From positions 1 through 44,346 of IMG/VR virus record IMGVR_UViG_3300042888_000541: a DNA stretch of 44,346 nt; one strand, 5' to 3'. The stretch comes from a virus. Below, in pieces: positions 2,413-43,762 of the stretch. Within the stretch, counting starts at the first letter, position 1. Every line of letters starts with the position of its first letter. A program made the position numbers and the translations under genes. Under the pieces are notes generated by a model. It saw nothing but the letters and a program-made list of their open reading frames with translations, searched no databases and was not told where the DNA came from.

Positions 2413-2820
2413 ATGAAAAAAACATTAATTGCAGAAACAGCTAGAATTCAAAAGCTTGCTGGTTTAATTACCGAAGAAGAATATATCAATATCACAATGC
2501 CAGAGGCAGAGGAAGAGGAAGAAGTTGAGATGGATGATACTGAGGATAACATGAATGCACCAGAGGAAGATTCTGATGAAGAGTTATCAGCAGAAGAACC
2601 AACATCACTTCCTTCAGATGCAGAAGAAGAGTTTGATATTAAAGGTAGAGCTAACTTATCACAGTTACTTGCAAAGAAGGATCACTTAATATCTAAGTTA
2701 AAAGCAGGAGACATTTCGTTAGATCAATACAAAGTGCAGATTGGAAACGTTCCTGCACAAATCAAAAAGATCAGAGCCAAAGCAGACGCAATGTTAAATG
2801 TATCCGATGAAGAAGATTAG
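2413..2820 (+). CDS. Acidic protein with putative N-terminal capsid-targeting peptide
   Basis: A 135-residue protein. The N-terminus reads MKKTLIAETARIQKLAGLIT followed by EEEY. The IQKLAGLITE core matches the N-termini of the genes at 21808 and 22714 (MQKLAGIITE) and 11565 (FQELAGIQE). ITE (residues 19-21) and IAE (6-8) fit the (L/I)xE site of T4-type prohead proteases. Residues 30-75 are extremely Glu/Asp-rich; the C-terminal 60 residues form a helical hairpin. I infer an internal head protein that enters the prohead with the scaffold and is trimmed. It has both promoter-type elements upstream and overlaps the next gene by 14 bases. Confidence 0.6.
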   Translation: MKKTLIAETARIQKLAGLITEEEYINITMPEAEEEEEVEMDDTEDNMNAPEEDSDEELSAEEPTSLPSDAEEEFDIKGRANLSQLLAKKDHLISKLKAGDISLDQYKVQIGNVPAQIKKIRAKADAMLNVSDEED

Positions 2821-10924: not shown

Positions 10925-11560
10925 ATGGAAAAGAACGTATTAATAGAGCATATAACATTTACACCACGACCAGAGCAGTTAAACGAATCTAAGTTTAACC
11001 AAGATAAACCTCTAATCGTGTCAGGAAAGATACAAGCTGCAGACAAACCAAATGCAAATCTTCGTATCTATACCTATGATGCTTTGAATGCGCAAGTTCA
11101 AAAGTACATTGATGGACCAATCAACGAAAGAAGATCATACGGAGAGTTAGACCACCCAGAGTCTAGCATCATTAATTTAAAAAATGCAAGCCATATTATC
11201 ACAAGAATGTGGTGGGAAGGTAAAGATCTTTATGGAGAATTTGAAATTCTATCAACTCCATCAGGTAATATATTAAAAGAGCTATTTCACAAACGTTGTA
11301 CGGTAGGTGTTTCATCAAGAGCATTAGGATCAACAATGCCAATTGGAGAAGGAATCGTACAAGTAGGTGATGATTTAGATCTTATTTGTTGGGACTTTGT
11401 ATCAAATCCATCTACATATGGAGCGTATGTAAAGCCAGCAGGAGGATTAAATGAAGGATACAATGCAGGTACAACTAATCCATATACTAAATACGCAAGT
11501 GTAAACAGAATGATCTCTGATCTAATATGTTCACAGTCAGGTGTATGCTGTCTGAAGTAA
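10925..11560 (+). CDS. gp21: Prohead maturation protease (gp21-like)
   Basis: A 211-residue serine protease that matures the prohead by cutting scaffold, core and capsid proteins at (L/I)xE sites. The catalytic His lies in RRSYGELDHPESS (H77), and the Ser in CTVGVSSRALGS (S130 or S131). The order H, then S, then a C-terminal acidic loop matches the herpes/T4 assemblin fold. LNE at about residue 20 and LNEG near residue 175 are candidate autocleavage sites. The gene sits upstream of the core protein, scaffold and capsid genes as in T4 (21-22-23). Confidence 0.9.
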   Translation: MEKNVLIEHITFTPRPEQLNESKFNQDKPLIVSGKIQAADKPNANLRIYTYDALNAQVQKYIDGPINERRSYGELDHPESSIINLKNASHIITRMWWEGKDLYGEFEILSTPSGNILKELFHKRCTVGVSSRALGSTMPIGEGIVQVGDDLDLICWDFVSNPSTYGAYVKPAGGLNEGYNAGTTNPYTKYASVNRMISDLICSQSGVCCLK

Positions 11561-11564
11561 GAAG

Positions 11565-11873
11565 ATGAACGAACTAAAAAGATTTCAAGAACTAGCAGGA
11601 ATACAGGAAAGAGAATTCAATATAATTCCTGATGAAAATCCATTGGATGATGTTCCGGGAATCGTGATAGACATAGATGATGATAACAATATGTTCGTTC
11701 AAATGAGTGCTTTATATCATGACAGTACAAACGGTAAGATGGCACTTCTAAAGGATAATCCAGCACTACAAGAGCTTGTAATGAAGGCAATTCAACAAGA
11801 AACACAAAAAGCATTCAGAAAAGCAGTACATGGTATCCTAGGTATACCGTACGGTCTAAAAGAAACTAAATAA
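11565..11873 (+). CDS. Small prohead core protein with LAGI targeting motif
   Basis: A 102-residue protein between the protease and scaffold genes, the position of a prohead core protein. The N-terminus MNELKRFQELAGIQEREF carries the same [hydrophobic]Q-x-LAGI motif as the proteins at 2413, 21808 and 22714. IQE (13-15) is a fitting prohead protease site. The rest is acidic (VIDIDDDNNMF) with a C-terminal helix (ALQELVMKAIQQETQKAFRKAVHGI). Its location is the main reason to read the shared motif as a head-targeting signal. No closer family was recognised. Confidence 0.6.
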   Translation: MNELKRFQELAGIQEREFNIIPDENPLDDVPGIVIDIDDDNNMFVQMSALYHDSTNGKMALLKDNPALQELVMKAIQQETQKAFRKAVHGILGIPYGLKETK

Positions 11874-12024: not shown

Positions 12025-13080
12025 ATGAGTACTAATCAAGAATTGTACAAACAAGCTATCCTTGATGCTAAAGCAGTTCGCGAGTCAGCGTTAGCTAATG
12101 CAAAGTCAGTTTTATCTGAAACTTTCGAGCCGAGGATTAAAGAGATGATGCGTTTAAAGCTATCAGAAGAGCTAGACGAAATGGAAGAAACTGAAGAGAC
12201 TTTAGATAACATCGTTGATACAGACATGGAAGAAGTAAAAAATTCAAACATGGAAGAATCTACATTAGATGATATCTTAGCTGAGCTTGATGCTATCGAA
12301 AACGAAGGCAAAGAGTCAACAGAAGAACCAGAAACGATGAACGAAGAAGCAGGGGAAGCTGAAGAAGAAACTGAAGAGGAAGAATCCTCAGAAGAAGAAG
12401 TTATGGGTGATGAAGGTGAAGAAGAAGAAGTGCAAGATGACACAGAAGTAGTAGACATTACTGTAGGCGAGTTTAAAGAGATCATTCGTGATTTATTTAA
12501 CACTTTACAAGGTGGTGGAGTAGGCATGGAAGACATGCAAGATACTGCTGATGCTGAAATGCAAGCTGGAGAAGACGATGAAATTTCTTTAGAAGAAATC
12601 ATAGCACAATTAGAAGGCGAGGACAATGCGGAAGAAGACGAAATGTTGAACCCAATTGAAGAAGCTAAAAAATCTATGAAGAAAGACGAAAAGAAAAAAG
12701 ACGAAGAGAAGAAAGAAAAAGAGGAAATGGCTAAAGAGCTTAAAGAAGCTATCAAGACAATCCAATCTTTGAAGTCGGAACTTAACGAGATTAACTTATT
12801 AAACGCTAAGTTACTTTACGTAAACAAACTTTTCAAATCTAAATCTTTAAACGAATCACAAAAAGTAAAAGTTCTTAATGCATTTGATAGAGCAACAACT
12901 GTAAAAGAAGCAGAGAACACTTACAAAACGTTAAATGAATCGTTATCATTAACTAAGAAGTCAACCATTAAAGAATCGGTTGGATTCGCATCTAAGCCAA
13001 TGGGTAATGCACCAGCAAAACCAATTGTAGAACACGATGCATCAGTTAGTAGATGGCAGCACTTAGCGGGTATTAAATAA
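12025..13080 (+). CDS. gp22: Prohead scaffold/core protein (gp22-like)
   Basis: A 351-residue, extremely Glu-rich protein with the hallmarks of a T4-type scaffold that fills the prohead and is later digested. Residues 45-230 are nearly continuous acidic segments, followed by a Lys/Glu charged helix and the conserved C-terminal block INLLNAKLLYVNKLFKSKSL (about 253-272) with NESQKVKVLNAFD. It ends in SRWQHLAGIK, which repeats the Q-x-LAGI motif found at the N-terminus of four other proteins here. It lies upstream of the major capsid gene with a 39-base gap. The Glu-rich coding causes a long serine-rich shadow frame on the opposite strand. Confidence 0.87.
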   Translation: MSTNQELYKQAILDAKAVRESALANAKSVLSETFEPRIKEMMRLKLSEELDEMEETEETLDNIVDTDMEEVKNSNMEESTLDDILAELDAIENEGKESTEEPETMNEEAGEAEEETEEEESSEEEVMGDEGEEEEVQDDTEVVDITVGEFKEIIRDLFNTLQGGGVGMEDMQDTADAEMQAGEDDEISLEEIIAQLEGEDNAEEDEMLNPIEEAKKSMKKDEKKKDEEKKEKEEMAKELKEAIKTIQSLKSELNEINLLNAKLLYVNKLFKSKSLNESQKVKVLNAFDRATTVKEAENTYKTLNESLSLTKKSTIKESVGFASKPMGNAPAKPIVEHDASVSRWQHLAGIK

Positions 13081-21185: not shown

Positions 21186-21671
21186 ATGCCAGTATTAGAC
21201 CCGAACGAGATAATGTTTACAGCTTTTGAACCAACCGTTCAAAACAGATTCATATTCAACATAGATGGAATCCCAGCTTACACTATTAAAAGTGCTACAG
21301 CACCAAACTTCTCACTAACTGAAATCAAGTTAGACCACATCAACGTTTACCGTAAGTTAAAAGGTAAGTTAGAGTGGGGAGATATGACTTTAAAGTTATA
21401 CAACCCAATCGCTCCTTCAGGACAACAAGCGGTAATGGAGTGGTTACGTTTATCACACGAGTCAGTAACAGGACGTGATGGATACTCAGATTTCTACAAG
21501 AAAGATGTTAGCTTATGGATCTTAGGTCCAGTAGGTGATGTTGTTTCAGAGTGGATTGTAAAAGGAGCTTTCATTAAGTCTTCAAACTTTGGATCATACG
21601 ATTTCGCAAATTCAGAGGCAGTTGAAATCGAGATGGTATTAGCGATGGATTTTTGTATCTTAAATTATTGA
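21186..21671 (+). CDS. gp19: Tail tube protein (gp19-like)
   Basis: The 161-residue inner tube subunit, the same size as T4 gp19 (163). PTVQNRFIFNIDGIPAYTIK, then WGDMTLKLYNPIAPSGQQAV and MEWLRLSHE, are the characteristic tube strands. The C-terminal half (KDVSLWILGPVGDVVSEWIV) completes the barrel. It is one of the late tail genes with its own octamer. Downstream, the tail operon is interrupted by the cargo-like cassette before resuming at 23608. Confidence 0.93.
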   Translation: MPVLDPNEIMFTAFEPTVQNRFIFNIDGIPAYTIKSATAPNFSLTEIKLDHINVYRKLKGKLEWGDMTLKLYNPIAPSGQQAVMEWLRLSHESVTGRDGYSDFYKKDVSLWILGPVGDVVSEWIVKGAFIKSSNFGSYDFANSEAVEIEMVLAMDFCILNY

Positions 21672-21742
21672 TACTGCGTACTGAATTACTACTTTTTAAA
21701 AGCACTCATCTGCTTATTAGAAAATAATTAAATTAAAAAAAA

Positions 21743-21774
21743 GTTGGCTTTTTAAAATTAAAGGTAGATCTTTA
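21743..21774 (+). promoter_or_regulatory. Host-type promoter candidate of the cargo cassette
   Basis: GTTGG (21743-21747), with 20 bases between TTG and the -7 box GATCTTTA (21767-21774). The 32-base stretch is strikingly similar to the one before queD (43218-43249): both start GTTGG, have a T run and an A-rich middle, and end ATCTTTAG. It lies 33 bases before the gene at 21808. Confidence 0.65.
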
Positions 21775-21807
21775 GGCCATTATAAAAAGCATATACAAAT
21801 ATAAAGC

Positions 21808-22680
21808 ATGAAAAAACTTAACGAACAAGCATTGCAAATGCAAAAATTAGCAGGTATTATCACTGAAAGTGAATATAATACTGAGATGGCTAAGATGGAT
21901 AACACTCCTAAAATGGAAGCTGAGGAAGAAGGAACTTCTGGTGGGGTAACTATAACATCTCAAGAGGAGTTAGATACCTATGTTGAGGAGAATGGCTTAG
22001 TTATTAATGGAAGCATAGAGAATAATTACGATCCAGAGTCTGGAGGGGAATTTTATGGTGAAAGTATTGAATTACCTGATAACTTAACTATAAAAGGAAA
22101 TTTATCAGGAGGAGATTTTGCTTTAGGTAACAACCTTACAATTGAAGGAGAGTGTTATTTTAATGTGGATAGTAGATATGTAGTAAATATGATTAAAATA
22201 CTTGATAAATCAAGTAATCACAATCTTATAACAGCAACGCACTTAGCTAAGAAGTTAGTTGTTAATACTCCCCAAGCAGATTTTGACTGGGGTAGTGCTG
22301 ATGAGCTAGTGTTACCAGACAACTTTATATGTGAAAGTGCATGGTGTATGTTATCTGCAGAAAAACCTTTTGAAAACGTAGAAAAAGCTACCATAGTAGT
22401 AAAAGGAGATCTTGATCTATTTGGCTCATTCGAAGGAGTAGATGATAATACATTTAGAGAATTTGCAAAGAGATTAAAAGTTACGGGTGATTGCCACCTT
22501 CTTTTTGGCTTCCCATCTTACTCAGAAGAGATGACAGATGAAGAAATAAGACAAATCTTCCCTAATGTTGAGGGAGAGATAGAAATTCGTACTAGAAAAG
22601 TACCAAACACAAAAGCACAACCAGACTCAGCAGCATCTATGAATGAAATGAATAAGATGAAGCGTAAGTCTAGAATGTAA
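21808..22680 (+). CDS. Putative capsid-targeted cargo protein with solenoid-like body
   Basis: A 290-residue protein. Residues 1-30 are nearly identical to the N-terminus of the next gene: MQKLAGIITESEYN (11-24), with ITE (18-20) as a candidate prohead protease site. The body (about 48-265) has repeated LPDNLTIKGNLSGG / LGNNLTIEGECYF / VVKGDLDLFGSFEG phrases suggesting a beta-solenoid or LRR-like sheet. The C-terminus is a Met/Lys/Asn linker, AASMNEMNKMKRKSRM. Function is unknown. I infer an internal head protein delivered with DNA. It has its own host-type promoter and shares a terminator with its paralogue. Alternative: a superinfection or host-modifying protein not in the virion. Confidence 0.6.
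   Translation: MKKLNEQALQMQKLAGIITESEYNTEMAKMDNTPKMEAEEEGTSGGVTITSQEELDTYVEENGLVINGSIENNYDPESGGEFYGESIELPDNLTIKGNLSGGDFALGNNLTIEGECYFNVDSRYVVNMIKILDKSSNHNLITATHLAKKLVVNTPQADFDWGSADELVLPDNFICESAWCMLSAEKPFENVEKATIVVKGDLDLFGSFEGVDDNTFREFAKRLKVTGDCHLLFGFPSYSEEMTDEEIRQIFPNVEGEIEIRTRKVPNTKAQPDSAASMNEMNKMKRKSRM
21828..21897 (+). repeat. 70-bp direct repeat, copy 1 (LAGIITE coding)
   Basis: This is identical to 22734-22803 except for one base (CTGAG versus CCGAG). It encodes residues 8-30 of the protein at 21808, covering the putative targeting peptide and cleavage site. The conservation is at DNA level, which suggests recent duplication or gene conversion of the tag only, since the downstream bodies are unrelated. 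Confidence 0.92.
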
Positions 22681-22713
22681 TACAACTAAATAAAACACAA
22701 ACAAACACATAAT

Positions 22714-23478
22714 ATGAAAAAATTAGACGCATCAGCATTGCAAATGCAAAAATTAGCAGGTATTATCACTGAAAGTGAATATAATACCGAGATGGCTAAG
22801 ATGAATAAAATGGAAGCTGAAGAAGGTTCAGGAGCAAATACCTACAAAGTAGTAGAGATTGGATCTAGAGGTGAAGAAGAGGGTGAAGAGATGGTGAAGA
22901 GTGACTTAAGTATCGAAGAATTCTGTAAAGAGCTATTAAAGAAAGAACAGGCAGAGATATTAGCAATGGCTGACAGTGCTGAAGAACGTGCAGAAACACT
23001 ACGTCACTTTAAAGAATTTTCAGGTGTTGGTGAATATGATGATAAATGGGAAGTAGCAGTTACTGAAGAAACAGGATACGATGTATACACAGAAGACCAA
23101 GCAGCATCTATGAATGAAATGAATAAGATGAACAAGATGGGACGTCATTCTAAAATGGAAGAAATGAATAAGATGAAGTCTGCTTCTAAAATGAAAGAAG
23201 CTGAAGAAGAGGGTGAAAATGTCTATAGAGTAGAAAAAATTGGATCTAGAGGTGCAGTAGAGGATGAAGATATAATTGATAGTGATTTAAACATTGAACA
23301 ATTCTGTAAACAATTACTAAAAGATAAGATGGAGGAAGAGTTATCACAAATCACTGATCCTAAGCAACGTGCAGAAATGCTAGCTGACTTTAAGGAATGG
23401 ATGAATGTTGGTGAGTATGGTGACCATTGGGAAGTAACTTACAGTGAAGAATCAGGATATAAAGTATATCAAATGTAA
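22714..23478 (+). CDS. Putative capsid-targeted cargo protein with tandem duplicated domain
   Basis: A 254-residue protein. The N-terminal 30 residues match the gene at 21808 (MQKLAGIITE, with ITE at 18-20). The rest is two copies of one domain of about 83 residues: copy 1 at 43-125 (YKVVEIGSRGEEEGEEMVKS) and copy 2 at 170-252 (YRVEKIGSRGAVEDEDIIDS), each ending GEY.D.WEV..(S/T)EE(T/S)GY.VY. They are joined by a Met/Asn/Lys-rich linker (AASMNEMNKMNKMG) that resembles the C-terminus of the upstream protein. No known fold was recognised. The gene ends 26 bases before a terminator. It is probably co-transcribed with the gene at 21808. Confidence 0.62.
   Translation: MKKLDASALQMQKLAGIITESEYNTEMAKMNKMEAEEGSGANTYKVVEIGSRGEEEGEEMVKSDLSIEEFCKELLKKEQAEILAMADSAEERAETLRHFKEFSGVGEYDDKWEVAVTEETGYDVYTEDQAASMNEMNKMNKMGRHSKMEEMNKMKSASKMKEAEEEGENVYRVEKIGSRGAVEDEDIIDSDLNIEQFCKQLLKDKMEEELSQITDPKQRAEMLADFKEWMNVGEYGDHWEVTYSEESGYKVYQM
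22734..22803 (+). repeat. 70-bp direct repeat, copy 2 (LAGIITE coding)
   Basis: The second copy of the repeat at 21828-21897, with one mismatch. It encodes residues 8-30 of the protein at 22714. Confidence 0.92.
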
Positions 23479-23504
23479 TACAATCACAAAAACACAATAT
23501 TAAG

Positions 23505-23537
23505 AACTCCTTTCTATAATTTAGAGAGGAGTTTTTT
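23505..23537 (+). terminator. Rho-independent terminator closing the cargo cassette
   Basis: An 11-bp stem AACTCCTTTCT/AGAGAGGAGTT (one G-U pair), a 7-base loop ATAATTT, and a T run to 23537. It lies 26 bases after the stop of the gene at 22714 and upstream of the gp26-like late gene. Confidence 0.9.
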
Positions 23538-23580
23538 ATTTTACTTGTAGATAACTAACACATAAAAGTCAAATCGTATA

Positions 23581-23588
23581 TATTTATT
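23581..23588 (+). promoter_or_regulatory. TATTTATT octamer (late-promoter candidate)
   Basis: TATTTATT lies 19 bases before the ATG at 23608 and just after the cassette terminator, so it is well placed to restart tail-gene transcription. Confidence 0.6.
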
Positions 23589-23607: not shown

Positions 23608-24372
23608 ATGACAGACACAAGTAAGGCAGGCTTACCATCAGAAGCCGTAGAACTACCTTCAAAAGGGTTAGTATACCCAAAAGAAAATCCACTATCTTCC
23701 GGAGTTGTTGAAATGAAATACATGACAGCACGTGAAGAAGATATTTTAACAAACCAAAACTTCATTAAGCAAGGGGTTGTATTTGACAAGCTATTAAGAT
23801 CGCTTATCATAAGTCCAATCAACTACGATGACCTAACCTTAGGAGATAAAAACGCAATCTTAATTGCAGGAAGAATCTTAGGATATGGAAAGCAGTATGT
23901 AGTATCAGTAACCCACCCTCAAACAGGCGAGCCTGAGGAAGTTTCAATCGATCTAACAGCGATTAAGAACAAAGAGGTGGACTACTCCACTTTGGCTAAT
24001 ATTAACGAATTTACGTATCAATTACCTACCTCAAATAACGAAGTAACTTTTAAGATCTTAACTCATAAAGATGAGAGGATGATTGAAGAGGAGTTAAAAA
24101 GTTTGAAGAAACTTAACATGTATAACGATGTTACAGTGAGATTAAAGTATGCAATCATTGCTATTAACGGAGATCGTGATGCTAAAGCAGTACGTGATTT
24201 TGTAGATAACCACATGTTAGCAACAGATTCAAGAGCTTTTAGAAAGCACATGAGAGAGATTACACCAGACCTAAACTTAACGATTAATATCGAATTTAAG
24301 GATGGCTACATACAGGAGGGTGTAGATTTACCACTAGGTATTTCATTTTTTTACCCTTCCACAGGACTATAG
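23608..24372 (+). CDS. gp26: gp26-like baseplate hub/tail assembly protein (T4_baseplate family)
   Basis: A 254-residue protein. ELPSKGLVYPKENPLSSGVV (about 15-34), then KYMTAREEDILTNQNFIKQG and LLRSLIISPINYDDLTLGDK, are typical of the T4 gp26/T4_baseplate family. It lies between the tail tube and tape measure genes, the position where other tailed phages encode tail assembly chaperones. The zero-frame stop is at 24370-24372, but the +1 frame stays open and continues a conserved-looking sequence, so a longer fusion product is probable (see the extension). It has its own octamer upstream. Confidence 0.82.
   Translation: MTDTSKAGLPSEAVELPSKGLVYPKENPLSSGVVEMKYMTAREEDILTNQNFIKQGVVFDKLLRSLIISPINYDDLTLGDKNAILIAGRILGYGKQYVVSVTHPQTGEPEEVSIDLTAIKNKEVDYSTLANINEFTYQLPTSNNEVTFKILTHKDERMIEEELKSLKKLNMYNDVTVRLKYAIIAINGDRDAKAVRDFVDNHMLATDSRAFRKHMREITPDLNLTINIEFKDGYIQEGVDLPLGISFFYPSTGL
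24346..24352 (+). other. Candidate ribosomal frameshift site (T7 run)
   Basis: Seven consecutive T residues lie near the end of the gp26-like gene. The needed change is +1 (or -2); the -1 frame closes at 24401-24403. The target frame is open from 24338, so slippage must occur between 24338 and 24372. AGGAGGG at 24314-24320 lies 26 bases upstream, probably too far to be a classical stimulator. Confidence 0.5.
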
Positions 24373-43282: not shown

Positions 43283-43762
43283 ATGGCAAGATATATTTCA
43301 ACAAAAACGTTTGACAACTACTCAGTTGCGATCAGACAATGGAAAGCACAGCACTCACACTGTCAATTACTACATGGTTATGGAATCTACTTTAAAGTAT
43401 GGTTTGCATCTAATCAACCAGATTTAGATAAGCAATTAGATGAGATGAATTGGATTGTTGACTTTGGAGGTTTTAAAACTAAACCAGTAGGAAATGGATT
43501 GAAGGATTGGATGGATCATATGTGGGATCACACATTACTAGTTGAGAAAGATGATCCTTTTGCTGATGTATTTGAGCAATTAGGACAAATGGGATTAGCT
43601 AAAGTACATTTAATGGATAAGATGGGTTGTGAATCATTAGCCAAGTTAGTATCAGATAAGTTTAATGAAGTATTATCTAACACAGATGGTGCTAGATGTA
43701 AAGTAATTAAAGTAGAGTGTTTTGAACACGGAAAGAATTCATCAATCTTTGAAGCTGAGTAA
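43283..43762 (+). CDS. queD: QueD-like 6-carboxy/6-pyruvoyl-tetrahydropterin synthase
   Basis: A 159-residue enzyme of the pterin synthase fold, expected to make 6-carboxytetrahydropterin from dihydroneopterin triphosphate on the way to 7-deazaguanine bases. HSHCQLLHGYGIYFKVWF carries catalytic C27; DHTLLVEKDDP supplies the catalytic His (H83); ECFEHGKNSSIFE is the terminal Glu motif. The zinc site is unusual: the first His (FxAAH in E. coli) is Ile, and HGH is HGY (Y33), a form I recognise from phage QueD proteins. Other preQ0 genes (folE, queE, queC) are not in this window. Confidence 0.87.
   Translation: MARYISTKTFDNYSVAIRQWKAQHSHCQLLHGYGIYFKVWFASNQPDLDKQLDEMNWIVDFGGFKTKPVGNGLKDWMDHMWDHTLLVEKDDPFADVFEQLGQMGLAKVHLMDKMGCESLAKLVSDKFNEVLSNTDGARCKVIKVECFEHGKNSSIFEAE

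What the first reader, a model, noticed from the sequence alone, without database searches (positions are those of the whole stretch)
21743..23537. Moron-like cargo cassette inside the tail operon
Between the tail tube and gp26-like genes lies a unit with its own host-type promoter (21743), two genes with near-identical targeting peptides and its own strong terminator (23505). Flanking late genes have separate TATTTATT octamers. This is the layout of a moron: an independently transcribed accessory unit. The bodies (solenoid-like; duplicated 83-residue domain) are unrecognised, so the injected or early-expressed functions are candidates for new anti-host or anti-defence activities.
Basis: partly seen in the sequence, partly recalled or inferred. 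Interest (0 to 1): 0.83.

Follow-up and report, generated by a model that had tools for sequence, protein, structure and literature searches.

The report
Scaffold-mimic tagged phage cargo cassette
In a large T4-like phage related to a Flavobacterium phage, an optional two-gene insert between two tail genes makes two proteins that start with a short tag copied from the end of the phage's own head-scaffold protein, which probably gets them loaded into the head and injected into the next host; the same tag sits on more than 70 unrelated protein groups in relatives, so it may be used to predict what these phages inject.

Summary
The observation mostly holds. The tail-tube/gp26 junction is an optional cargo site: of 56 other distinct intervals, 19 are empty and 37 carry other cargo; this gene pair occurs only in this phage. 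The promoter at 21744 is credible: it matches (one mismatch) a motif found in front of relatives' cargo at this site and 26 times exactly in phage immuto, probably early-class. The terminator is strong but not the cassette's own: it matches the relatives' tail-tube terminator, whose copy after the tail tube has decayed here, so late transcripts probably read in too.

The main result is the targeting peptide. MQKLAGIITE copies the C-terminal tail of the phage's own scaffold (RWQHLAGIK). A model built only from scaffold tails finds, among 761 ORFs, the two scaffolds and exactly six N-terminal leaders before noise. Leaders end in an [IL]xE motif like T4 prohead-protease sites, occur on 74 unrelated body clusters, and often follow late boxes. 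Best reading: T4-internal-protein-like cargo, docked by scaffold mimicry, cut, packaged and injected. The bodies' functions are unknown; packaging, cleavage and promoter timing are inferred, not tested.

The parts
21186..21671 (+). gp19-like tail tube gene; left border of the variable site
   Evidence: phrog_4542 E 1.5e-24; Phage_T4_gp19 E 3.6e-4, below gathering score
21161..21169 (+). late-type box ATATTTATT upstream of gp19
   Evidence: motif enriched and strand-biased in the window
21690..21740 (+). decayed stem-loop after gp19, homologous to the intact gp19 terminator of HNH-carrying relatives; no T-tract
   Evidence: alignments; -6.8 kcal/mol here against -14.4 in a sibling
21744..21775 (+). 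predicted early-class promoter TTG-N20-GATCTTTAG
   Evidence: one mismatch from TTG-N20-TAT[AC]TTTAG, 26 exact forward sites in immuto against 0.2 expected; the same geometry precedes cargo in siblings
21808..22680 (+). orfA: leader, beta-solenoid body, K/M-rich tail
21808..21867 (+). orfA leader MKKLNEQALQMQKLAGIITE; predicted prohead-protease cut after Glu20
   Evidence: found by a profile of scaffold tails, E 0.038 with noise at E 2 and above
22714..23478 (+). orfB: same leader, two copies of an orphan domain of about 85 residues separated by a K/M-rich linker that matches orfA's tail
22714..22773 (+). orfB leader MKKLDASALQMQKLAGIITE; predicted cut after Glu20
   Evidence: found by the scaffold-tail profile, E 0.035
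22837..23088 (+). orfB domain copy 1
   Evidence: alignment A1
23215..23472 (+). orfB domain copy 2
   Evidence: alignment A1
23502..23536 (+). strong intrinsic terminator, homologous to the siblings' gp19 terminator
   Evidence: z -5.8; scan; alignment
23579..23588 (+). late-type box TATATTTATT of gp26, also present in empty sibling sites
23608..24372 (+). gp26-like baseplate hub gene; right border of the variable site
   Evidence: T4_baseplate E 1e-6, phrog_150 E 2.5e-11
12025..13080 (+). scaffold (gp22 position); its C-terminal tail VSRWQHLAGIK (13045-13077) is the model the leaders copy
10925..11560 (+). prohead protease (gp21-like), predicted to cut the leaders
   Evidence: phrog_207 head maturation protease E 2.7e-43
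11565..11873 (+). leader-bearing gene (MNELKRFQELAGIQE) between protease and scaffold
   Evidence: found by the scaffold-tail profile, E 0.014
2413..2820 (+). leader-bearing gene (MKKTLIAETARIQKLAGLITE) before the terminase, with a late-type box 30 nt upstream
   Evidence: same place in L097 and L099

Best explanation
The insert is an optional cargo cassette at a recombination-prone tail-gene junction, and its two products are head-packaged, injected proteins. Step 1 (inferred from sequence identity): the leader copies the docking motif at the end of the phage's own scaffold, so the precursors enter the assembling prohead in the place of, or beside, scaffold tails. Step 2 (inferred): the gp21-like protease cuts after the [IL]xE motif (IIT-E|S), freeing the body, as it is expected to cut the scaffold 11 residues before LAG. 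Step 3 (inferred by analogy with T4 internal proteins): the bodies stay with the packaged DNA and enter the next host with it. Expression: an early-class promoter at 21744 starts the pair; because the gp19 terminator has decayed here and an intact one lies after orfB, late gp19 transcripts probably also run through both genes, supplying precursor during head assembly. Shown by sequence comparison: optional site, leader identity with the scaffold tail, modularity, cut motif, promoter class, terminator displacement. Not shown: packaging, cleavage, injection, promoter activity and what the bodies do.
For: A profile made only from scaffold C-termini, run on 761 ORFs of the window and immuto, returns the two scaffolds and then exactly six N-terminal leaders (E 5e-6 to 0.066) before noise at E 2 and above; profile-profile P 6.8e-6. 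The tail motif is present in nearly all of 79 loci selected only for the capsid gene and in Microcystis phage Mel-JY01, Rhodothermus phage RM378 and a metagenomic jumbo phage. The tail is preceded by [IV][IVLM]E in 54 of 60 distinct scaffolds against 1.5% in control stretches. The leader pattern occurs at 43 N-termini and 71 C-termini in 2,995 ORFs against 1 in shuffled proteins (some of these loci were fetched for the leader). In 80 capsid-selected loci 20 carry a leader gene, and 16 of 17 distinct leaders have E within three residues. 135 leader proteins carry 74 body clusters, and 70 have a late box upstream against 2.7% of random stretches. T4 gp21 cuts after L/I-X-E and T4 internal proteins use N-terminal capsid-targeting propeptides (PMC9026906). 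Optional site. Promoter. Terminator.
Against: No virion proteomics, transcript or structure supports packaging, cutting or promoter activity. An early-class promoter fits poorly with head assembly: no leader gene examined outside this phage has one, and this pair has no late box of its own. The -7 box has one mismatch (GATC for TATC). The motif is short and the individual E-values of the window's leaders are weak (0.014-0.066), although the ranking is clean. In T4 itself the scaffold tail does not resemble the capsid-targeting sequence, so the mimicry is not a general T4 rule.
Confidence: 0.62

Rival explanations
1. Early host-takeover cassette: the two proteins act in the infected cell soon after they are made from the early-class promoter, and the leader is a relic or has another role; no packaging.
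For: Early-class promoter with no late box of its own; in siblings the same promoter position drives small membrane-protein genes with no leader.
Against: The leader is nearly identical in DNA between the two genes while the bodies differ, which is unlikely for a relic; it keeps the protease motif; the same leader elsewhere is often behind late boxes; gp19 read-through can supply late expression.
Confidence: 0.2
2. Head-assembly factors: the leader proteins are minor prohead core components (like T4 gp67/gp68) that help build the core and are then cut away, not delivered effectors.
For: One leader gene lies between protease and scaffold (11565), where core genes lie; the leader equals the scaffold tail.
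Against: The cassette is optional and confined to this phage; leaders occur on 74 unrelated body clusters, too varied for a conserved structural role.
Confidence: 0.13
3. The gene pair and shared leader are a chance or assembly artefact, or the ORFs are not expressed.
For: Orphan bodies with no family match; low-complexity K/M/E-rich linkers.
Against: Both genes are encoded with identical protein sequence in another contig (L003), and the first 122 residues of orfA in a second (L083); the leader ranks above all noise in a profile search.
Confidence: 0.03

Closest known systems
T4 internal proteins IPI/IPII/IPIII and Alt with capsid-targeting sequence (CTS) and gp21 cleavage
   Same: Short N-terminal leader shared by unrelated bodies; ends in an [IL]xE gp21-type motif (T4 IPI's N-terminal segment contains ITE followed by A); a gp21-like protease is encoded; T4 members are packaged, injected and counter host defences (PMC9026906, PMC9391042).
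   Different: The leader sequence is unrelated to the T4 CTS and copies the phage's own scaffold tail, which the T4 CTS does not do; it is found on at least 74 body clusters; this cassette has an early-class promoter.
PeSL elements (promoter early stem-loop) that shuffle genes in T4-type phages (Arbiol 2010; Comeau 2014, as cited in PMC4503421)
   Same: Stem-loop terminator next to an early-class promoter at a variable junction inside conserved genes; different cargo in different relatives.
   Different: Another promoter motif and another phage lineage; in the window the upstream stem-loop has decayed and an intact copy sits downstream. The two primary papers were not available to read.
Morons
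   Same: Extra genes between two genes that are adjacent in relatives, with a promoter of their own.
   Different: The terminator belongs to the site, there is no sign of lysogeny, and base composition is close to the rest (33% against 35% G+C).
Encapsulin cargo-loading peptides and P22 scaffold-fusion cargo (from general knowledge)
   Same: A short peptide loads cargo into an HK97-fold shell; in P22 engineering the scaffold's C-terminus does this.
   Different: Natural, N-terminal, predicted to be removed by protease, and used by phage cargo rather than compartment enzymes.

Membership tests
T4-type capsid-targeted internal proteins | N-terminal leader shared between otherwise unrelated proteins of one phage | tested here: met
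   orfA, orfB, 2413 and 11565
T4-type capsid-targeted internal proteins | leader ends in an L/I-X-E motif and the phage encodes a gp21-type protease | tested here: met
   LITE/IITE/LINE in 121 of 135 leaders; protease phrog_207 E 2.7e-43
T4-type capsid-targeted internal proteins | sequence similarity to the T4 CTS | tested here: not met
   no resemblance, by eye, to the ipI/ipII/ipIII N-termini; so filed as working like them, not as a member
T4-type capsid-targeted internal proteins | present in the virion, cut, and injected | not testable with these tools
   needs virion proteomics
Moron | present in some relatives and absent at the same junction in others | tested here: met
   19 distinct empty and 37 otherwise loaded junctions
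Moron | own promoter | tested here: met
   sequence level only: TTG-N20-GATCTTTAG
Moron | own terminator, insulating the unit | tested here: not met
   terminator homologous to the resident gp19 terminator; upstream copy decayed
Moron | expressed from a prophage | not tested
   window is a T4-like fragment; integration genes were not searched for
PeSL-shuffled module of T4-type phages | stem-loop plus early promoter at a junction with variable cargo | tested here: met
   26 of 37 distinct loaded sibling junctions hold an early box within one mismatch, with the stem-loop before it in those read
PeSL-shuffled module of T4-type phages | recombination between PeSL copies | tested here: inconclusive

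The most novel reading that the evidence does not exclude
In a whole lineage of T4-like phages of Bacteroidota and relatives, capsid loading works by molecular mimicry of the scaffold: any protein that acquires an N-terminal copy of the scaffold's C-terminal tail plus a protease site becomes head cargo. Leader-bearing genes therefore list the injected proteome, and this cassette adds an early promoter so that the same proteins are both injected and remade soon after entry.
Probability: 0.4. Interest if true: 0.82.

Novelty: new variant of a known kind. Interest (0 to 1): 0.66.

Why it matters
T4 internal proteins are known counter-defence factors, but outside T4 there is little way to tell from sequence which phage proteins are injected. 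It also gives a concrete hypothesis for how cargo is recruited (competition or co-assembly with scaffold) that a cultured relative, immuto, can test directly.

Tried and rejected
Families for the two bodies: Pfam, PHROGs, NCBIfam, PADLOC and PDB sequences gave nothing or only sub-threshold matches. Wider searches found no homologue of the bodies in viral contigs other than the same phage, in genome contigs (orfA only), or with a profile of the two orfB domains. In the phage records orfA matched immuto gene 187 over residues 1-73 only and weakly (E 0.01), and orfB nothing.

Structure: orfA's fold search gave no Foldseek match at E 0.001 or better; the second-look list is a mix of generic beta-solenoids (GlmU, LpxD, pectate lyase), so no function is claimed. 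orfB's single-sequence model is poor (pLDDT 59.5) and was not searched.

E. coli-type sigma-70 promoter scanning is at chance here and was dropped. TTG-N18-21-TAnnTTTG is not enriched on the coding strand in the window or immuto; TTG-N20-TAT[AC]TTTAG is.

T4's own scaffold tail was checked as a precedent for the mimicry and does not match the T4 CTS. A literature search for the leader letters found nothing, and the two PeSL primary papers are not held.

Full report
What the window is. The 44 kb window is a fragment of a T4-like myovirus whose nearest annotated relative is Flavobacterium phage immuto (160 kb; sheath 43.5% and capsid protein 55% identical). Gene order runs terminase, portal, prohead protease, scaffold, gp23-type capsid protein, PhoH, neck genes, sheath, tube, the cassette, gp26-like hub, then probable tape measure and baseplate genes (by position, size and comparison with immuto where no family matched).

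The cassette is optional. I fetched 80 loci by the tube gene alone and measured the interval to the gp26-like gene. Of 69 closed intervals there are, after collapsing identical ones and leaving out the window's own, 19 empty and 37 loaded. Empty sites are about 100 bp and hold an intrinsic terminator followed by the late-type box of gp26. Loaded sites hold small membrane proteins of about 70-150 residues, HNH endonucleases (NUMOD3 motif), glycine-rich proteins of about 398 residues, or combinations. The window's gene pair was seen only in the window and in two contigs with identical protein sequence, one of them holding only the first part of orfA.

Promoter. TTG-N20-TAT[AC]TTTAG occurs 26 times exactly on the forward strand of immuto against 0.2 expected, mostly in a block of small genes at 60-76 kb. 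That is typical of early regions, but timing is inferred; the general Bacteroidota pattern TTG...TAnnTTTG is from my own knowledge. In the siblings, 26 of 37 distinct loaded intervals carry this box within one mismatch, and in those read it lies just before the membrane-protein gene. The window's site at 21744 has the right spacing and one mismatch in the -7 box.

Terminator. The hairpin at 23502-23536 is strong. Its sequence matches the gp19 terminator of HNH-carrying siblings, and the stretch right after the window's gp19 is a decayed homologue of the same element with a broken stem and no T-tract. So the terminator is the site's, not the cassette's, and gp19's late transcripts probably continue through orfA and orfB. 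The unit has its own start but shares its late supply.

The leader is a scaffold tail. The two proteins start MKKL...QMQKLAGIITE. The scaffold of this phage ends VSRWQHLAGIK and immuto's ends VSRWQKLAGIIK. In 79 loci chosen only by the capsid gene, nearly every scaffold ends in this motif (65 by a strict LAG pattern, the rest IAG, LAF or similar variants). More distant phages have it too: Mel-JY01 ends VVERMKKLAGIVK and RM378 ends LERIKRLAGL. A profile made from scaffold tails only, run against 761 ORFs on both strands of the window and immuto, ranks the two scaffolds first, then six proteins matched at their N-termini: immuto 187 and 42 and window 11565, 22714, 21808 and 2413; everything after that has E of 2 or more. 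Leader and tail profiles align with P 6.8e-6. In 2,995 ORFs the pattern occurs at 43 N-termini and 71 C-termini against 1 match in shuffled proteins; that set includes loci fetched for the leader, so the unbiased figure is the capsid-selected one: 20 of 80 loci have a leader gene.

Cut site. T4 gp21 cuts after L/I-X-E (PMC9026906). Scaffold tails are preceded by [IV][IVLM]E in 54 of 60 cases against 1.5% in control stretches, with the Glu 11 residues before LAG in 47 (a looser [ILV]xE pattern is common in the scaffold generally, 63% of control stretches). Leaders continue LITE, IITE or LINE in 121 of 135 cases (partly by selection, but 16 of 17 capsid-selected leaders have E within three residues). 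The window encodes the protease. So the docking motif is separated from the body by a predicted cut: body-cut-motif in the scaffold, motif-cut-body in cargo.

Modularity. Among 135 distinct leader proteins, 133 bodies of 35 residues or more form 74 clusters at E 1e-4, and nine pairs of leader genes are adjacent. Within the window's pair, the leader DNA is almost identical from codon 8 to codon 30 and a K/M-rich stretch is shared, while the bodies differ. Leader genes elsewhere have a late-type box within 120 nt upstream in 70 of 135 cases against 2.7% of random stretches; only leader genes of the window's own phage have an early-class box. This is the oddity of the cassette.

How it most likely works. 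Precursors dock in the prohead by imitating the scaffold tail, the protease frees the bodies, and the bodies are packaged and injected, as T4 internal proteins are (PMC9026906, PMC9391042). T4 IPI blocks a restriction enzyme and IPIII is needed on a particular host, so counter-defence is a fair guess for these bodies, but nothing here tests it. Early expression in addition could replenish the protein after entry.

Limits. All steps of packaging, cutting and injection are inferred. The bodies have no known relatives; orfA is a generic beta-solenoid prediction and orfB's model is unusable. The primary PeSL papers could not be read.

Noticed in passing
L016, L006, L026, L043, L060: first 65 bases after gp19: In HNH-endonuclease carriers the late-type octamer (CTATTTATT) lies in the loop of the gp19 terminator hairpin, and the endonuclease start codon follows the T-tract directly, so the terminator seems to double as the promoter region.
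   Followed up: partly
gp19-gp26 interval of about 25 distinct sibling loci, e.g. L005, L044, L058: Small (about 70-150 aa) membrane proteins without Pfam match sit behind the early-class promoter inside the late tail operon; superinfection-exclusion-like roles are worth testing.
   Followed up: partly
window 2413-2820 and L097, L099: A leader-bearing gene lies just before the terminase in several relatives, with unrelated bodies; a second likely cargo site.
   Followed up: partly
L098 3279-3998 and 4044-5375 (minus strand): Leader motifs occur inside longer ORFs (RMQKLAGIITESEYKEKK, RMQKLAGVISE), perhaps internal starts or polyprotein-like cargo.
   Followed up: no
L125, L127, L128, L129, L131, L139, L144, about 3-4 kb upstream of the capsid gene: A large head-operon protein (about 310-620 aa) starts with the leader variant E(V/I/L)ERLKLIAGLINE or similar; it may be the core protein from which cargo leaders spread.
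   Followed up: no
window 43219 and 43283-43762: The only exact early-class promoter match in the window precedes a QueD-like 6-pyruvoyl-tetrahydropterin synthase gene (phrog_2389, E 1.1e-33).
   Followed up: no
L316 (LR756508.1) and L315 (RM378): Scaffold-tail motif variants (SRMQKLADIS, LERIKRLAGL) extend to a jumbo phage and a Rhodothermus phage; whether they also have leader cargo was not checked.
   Followed up: no
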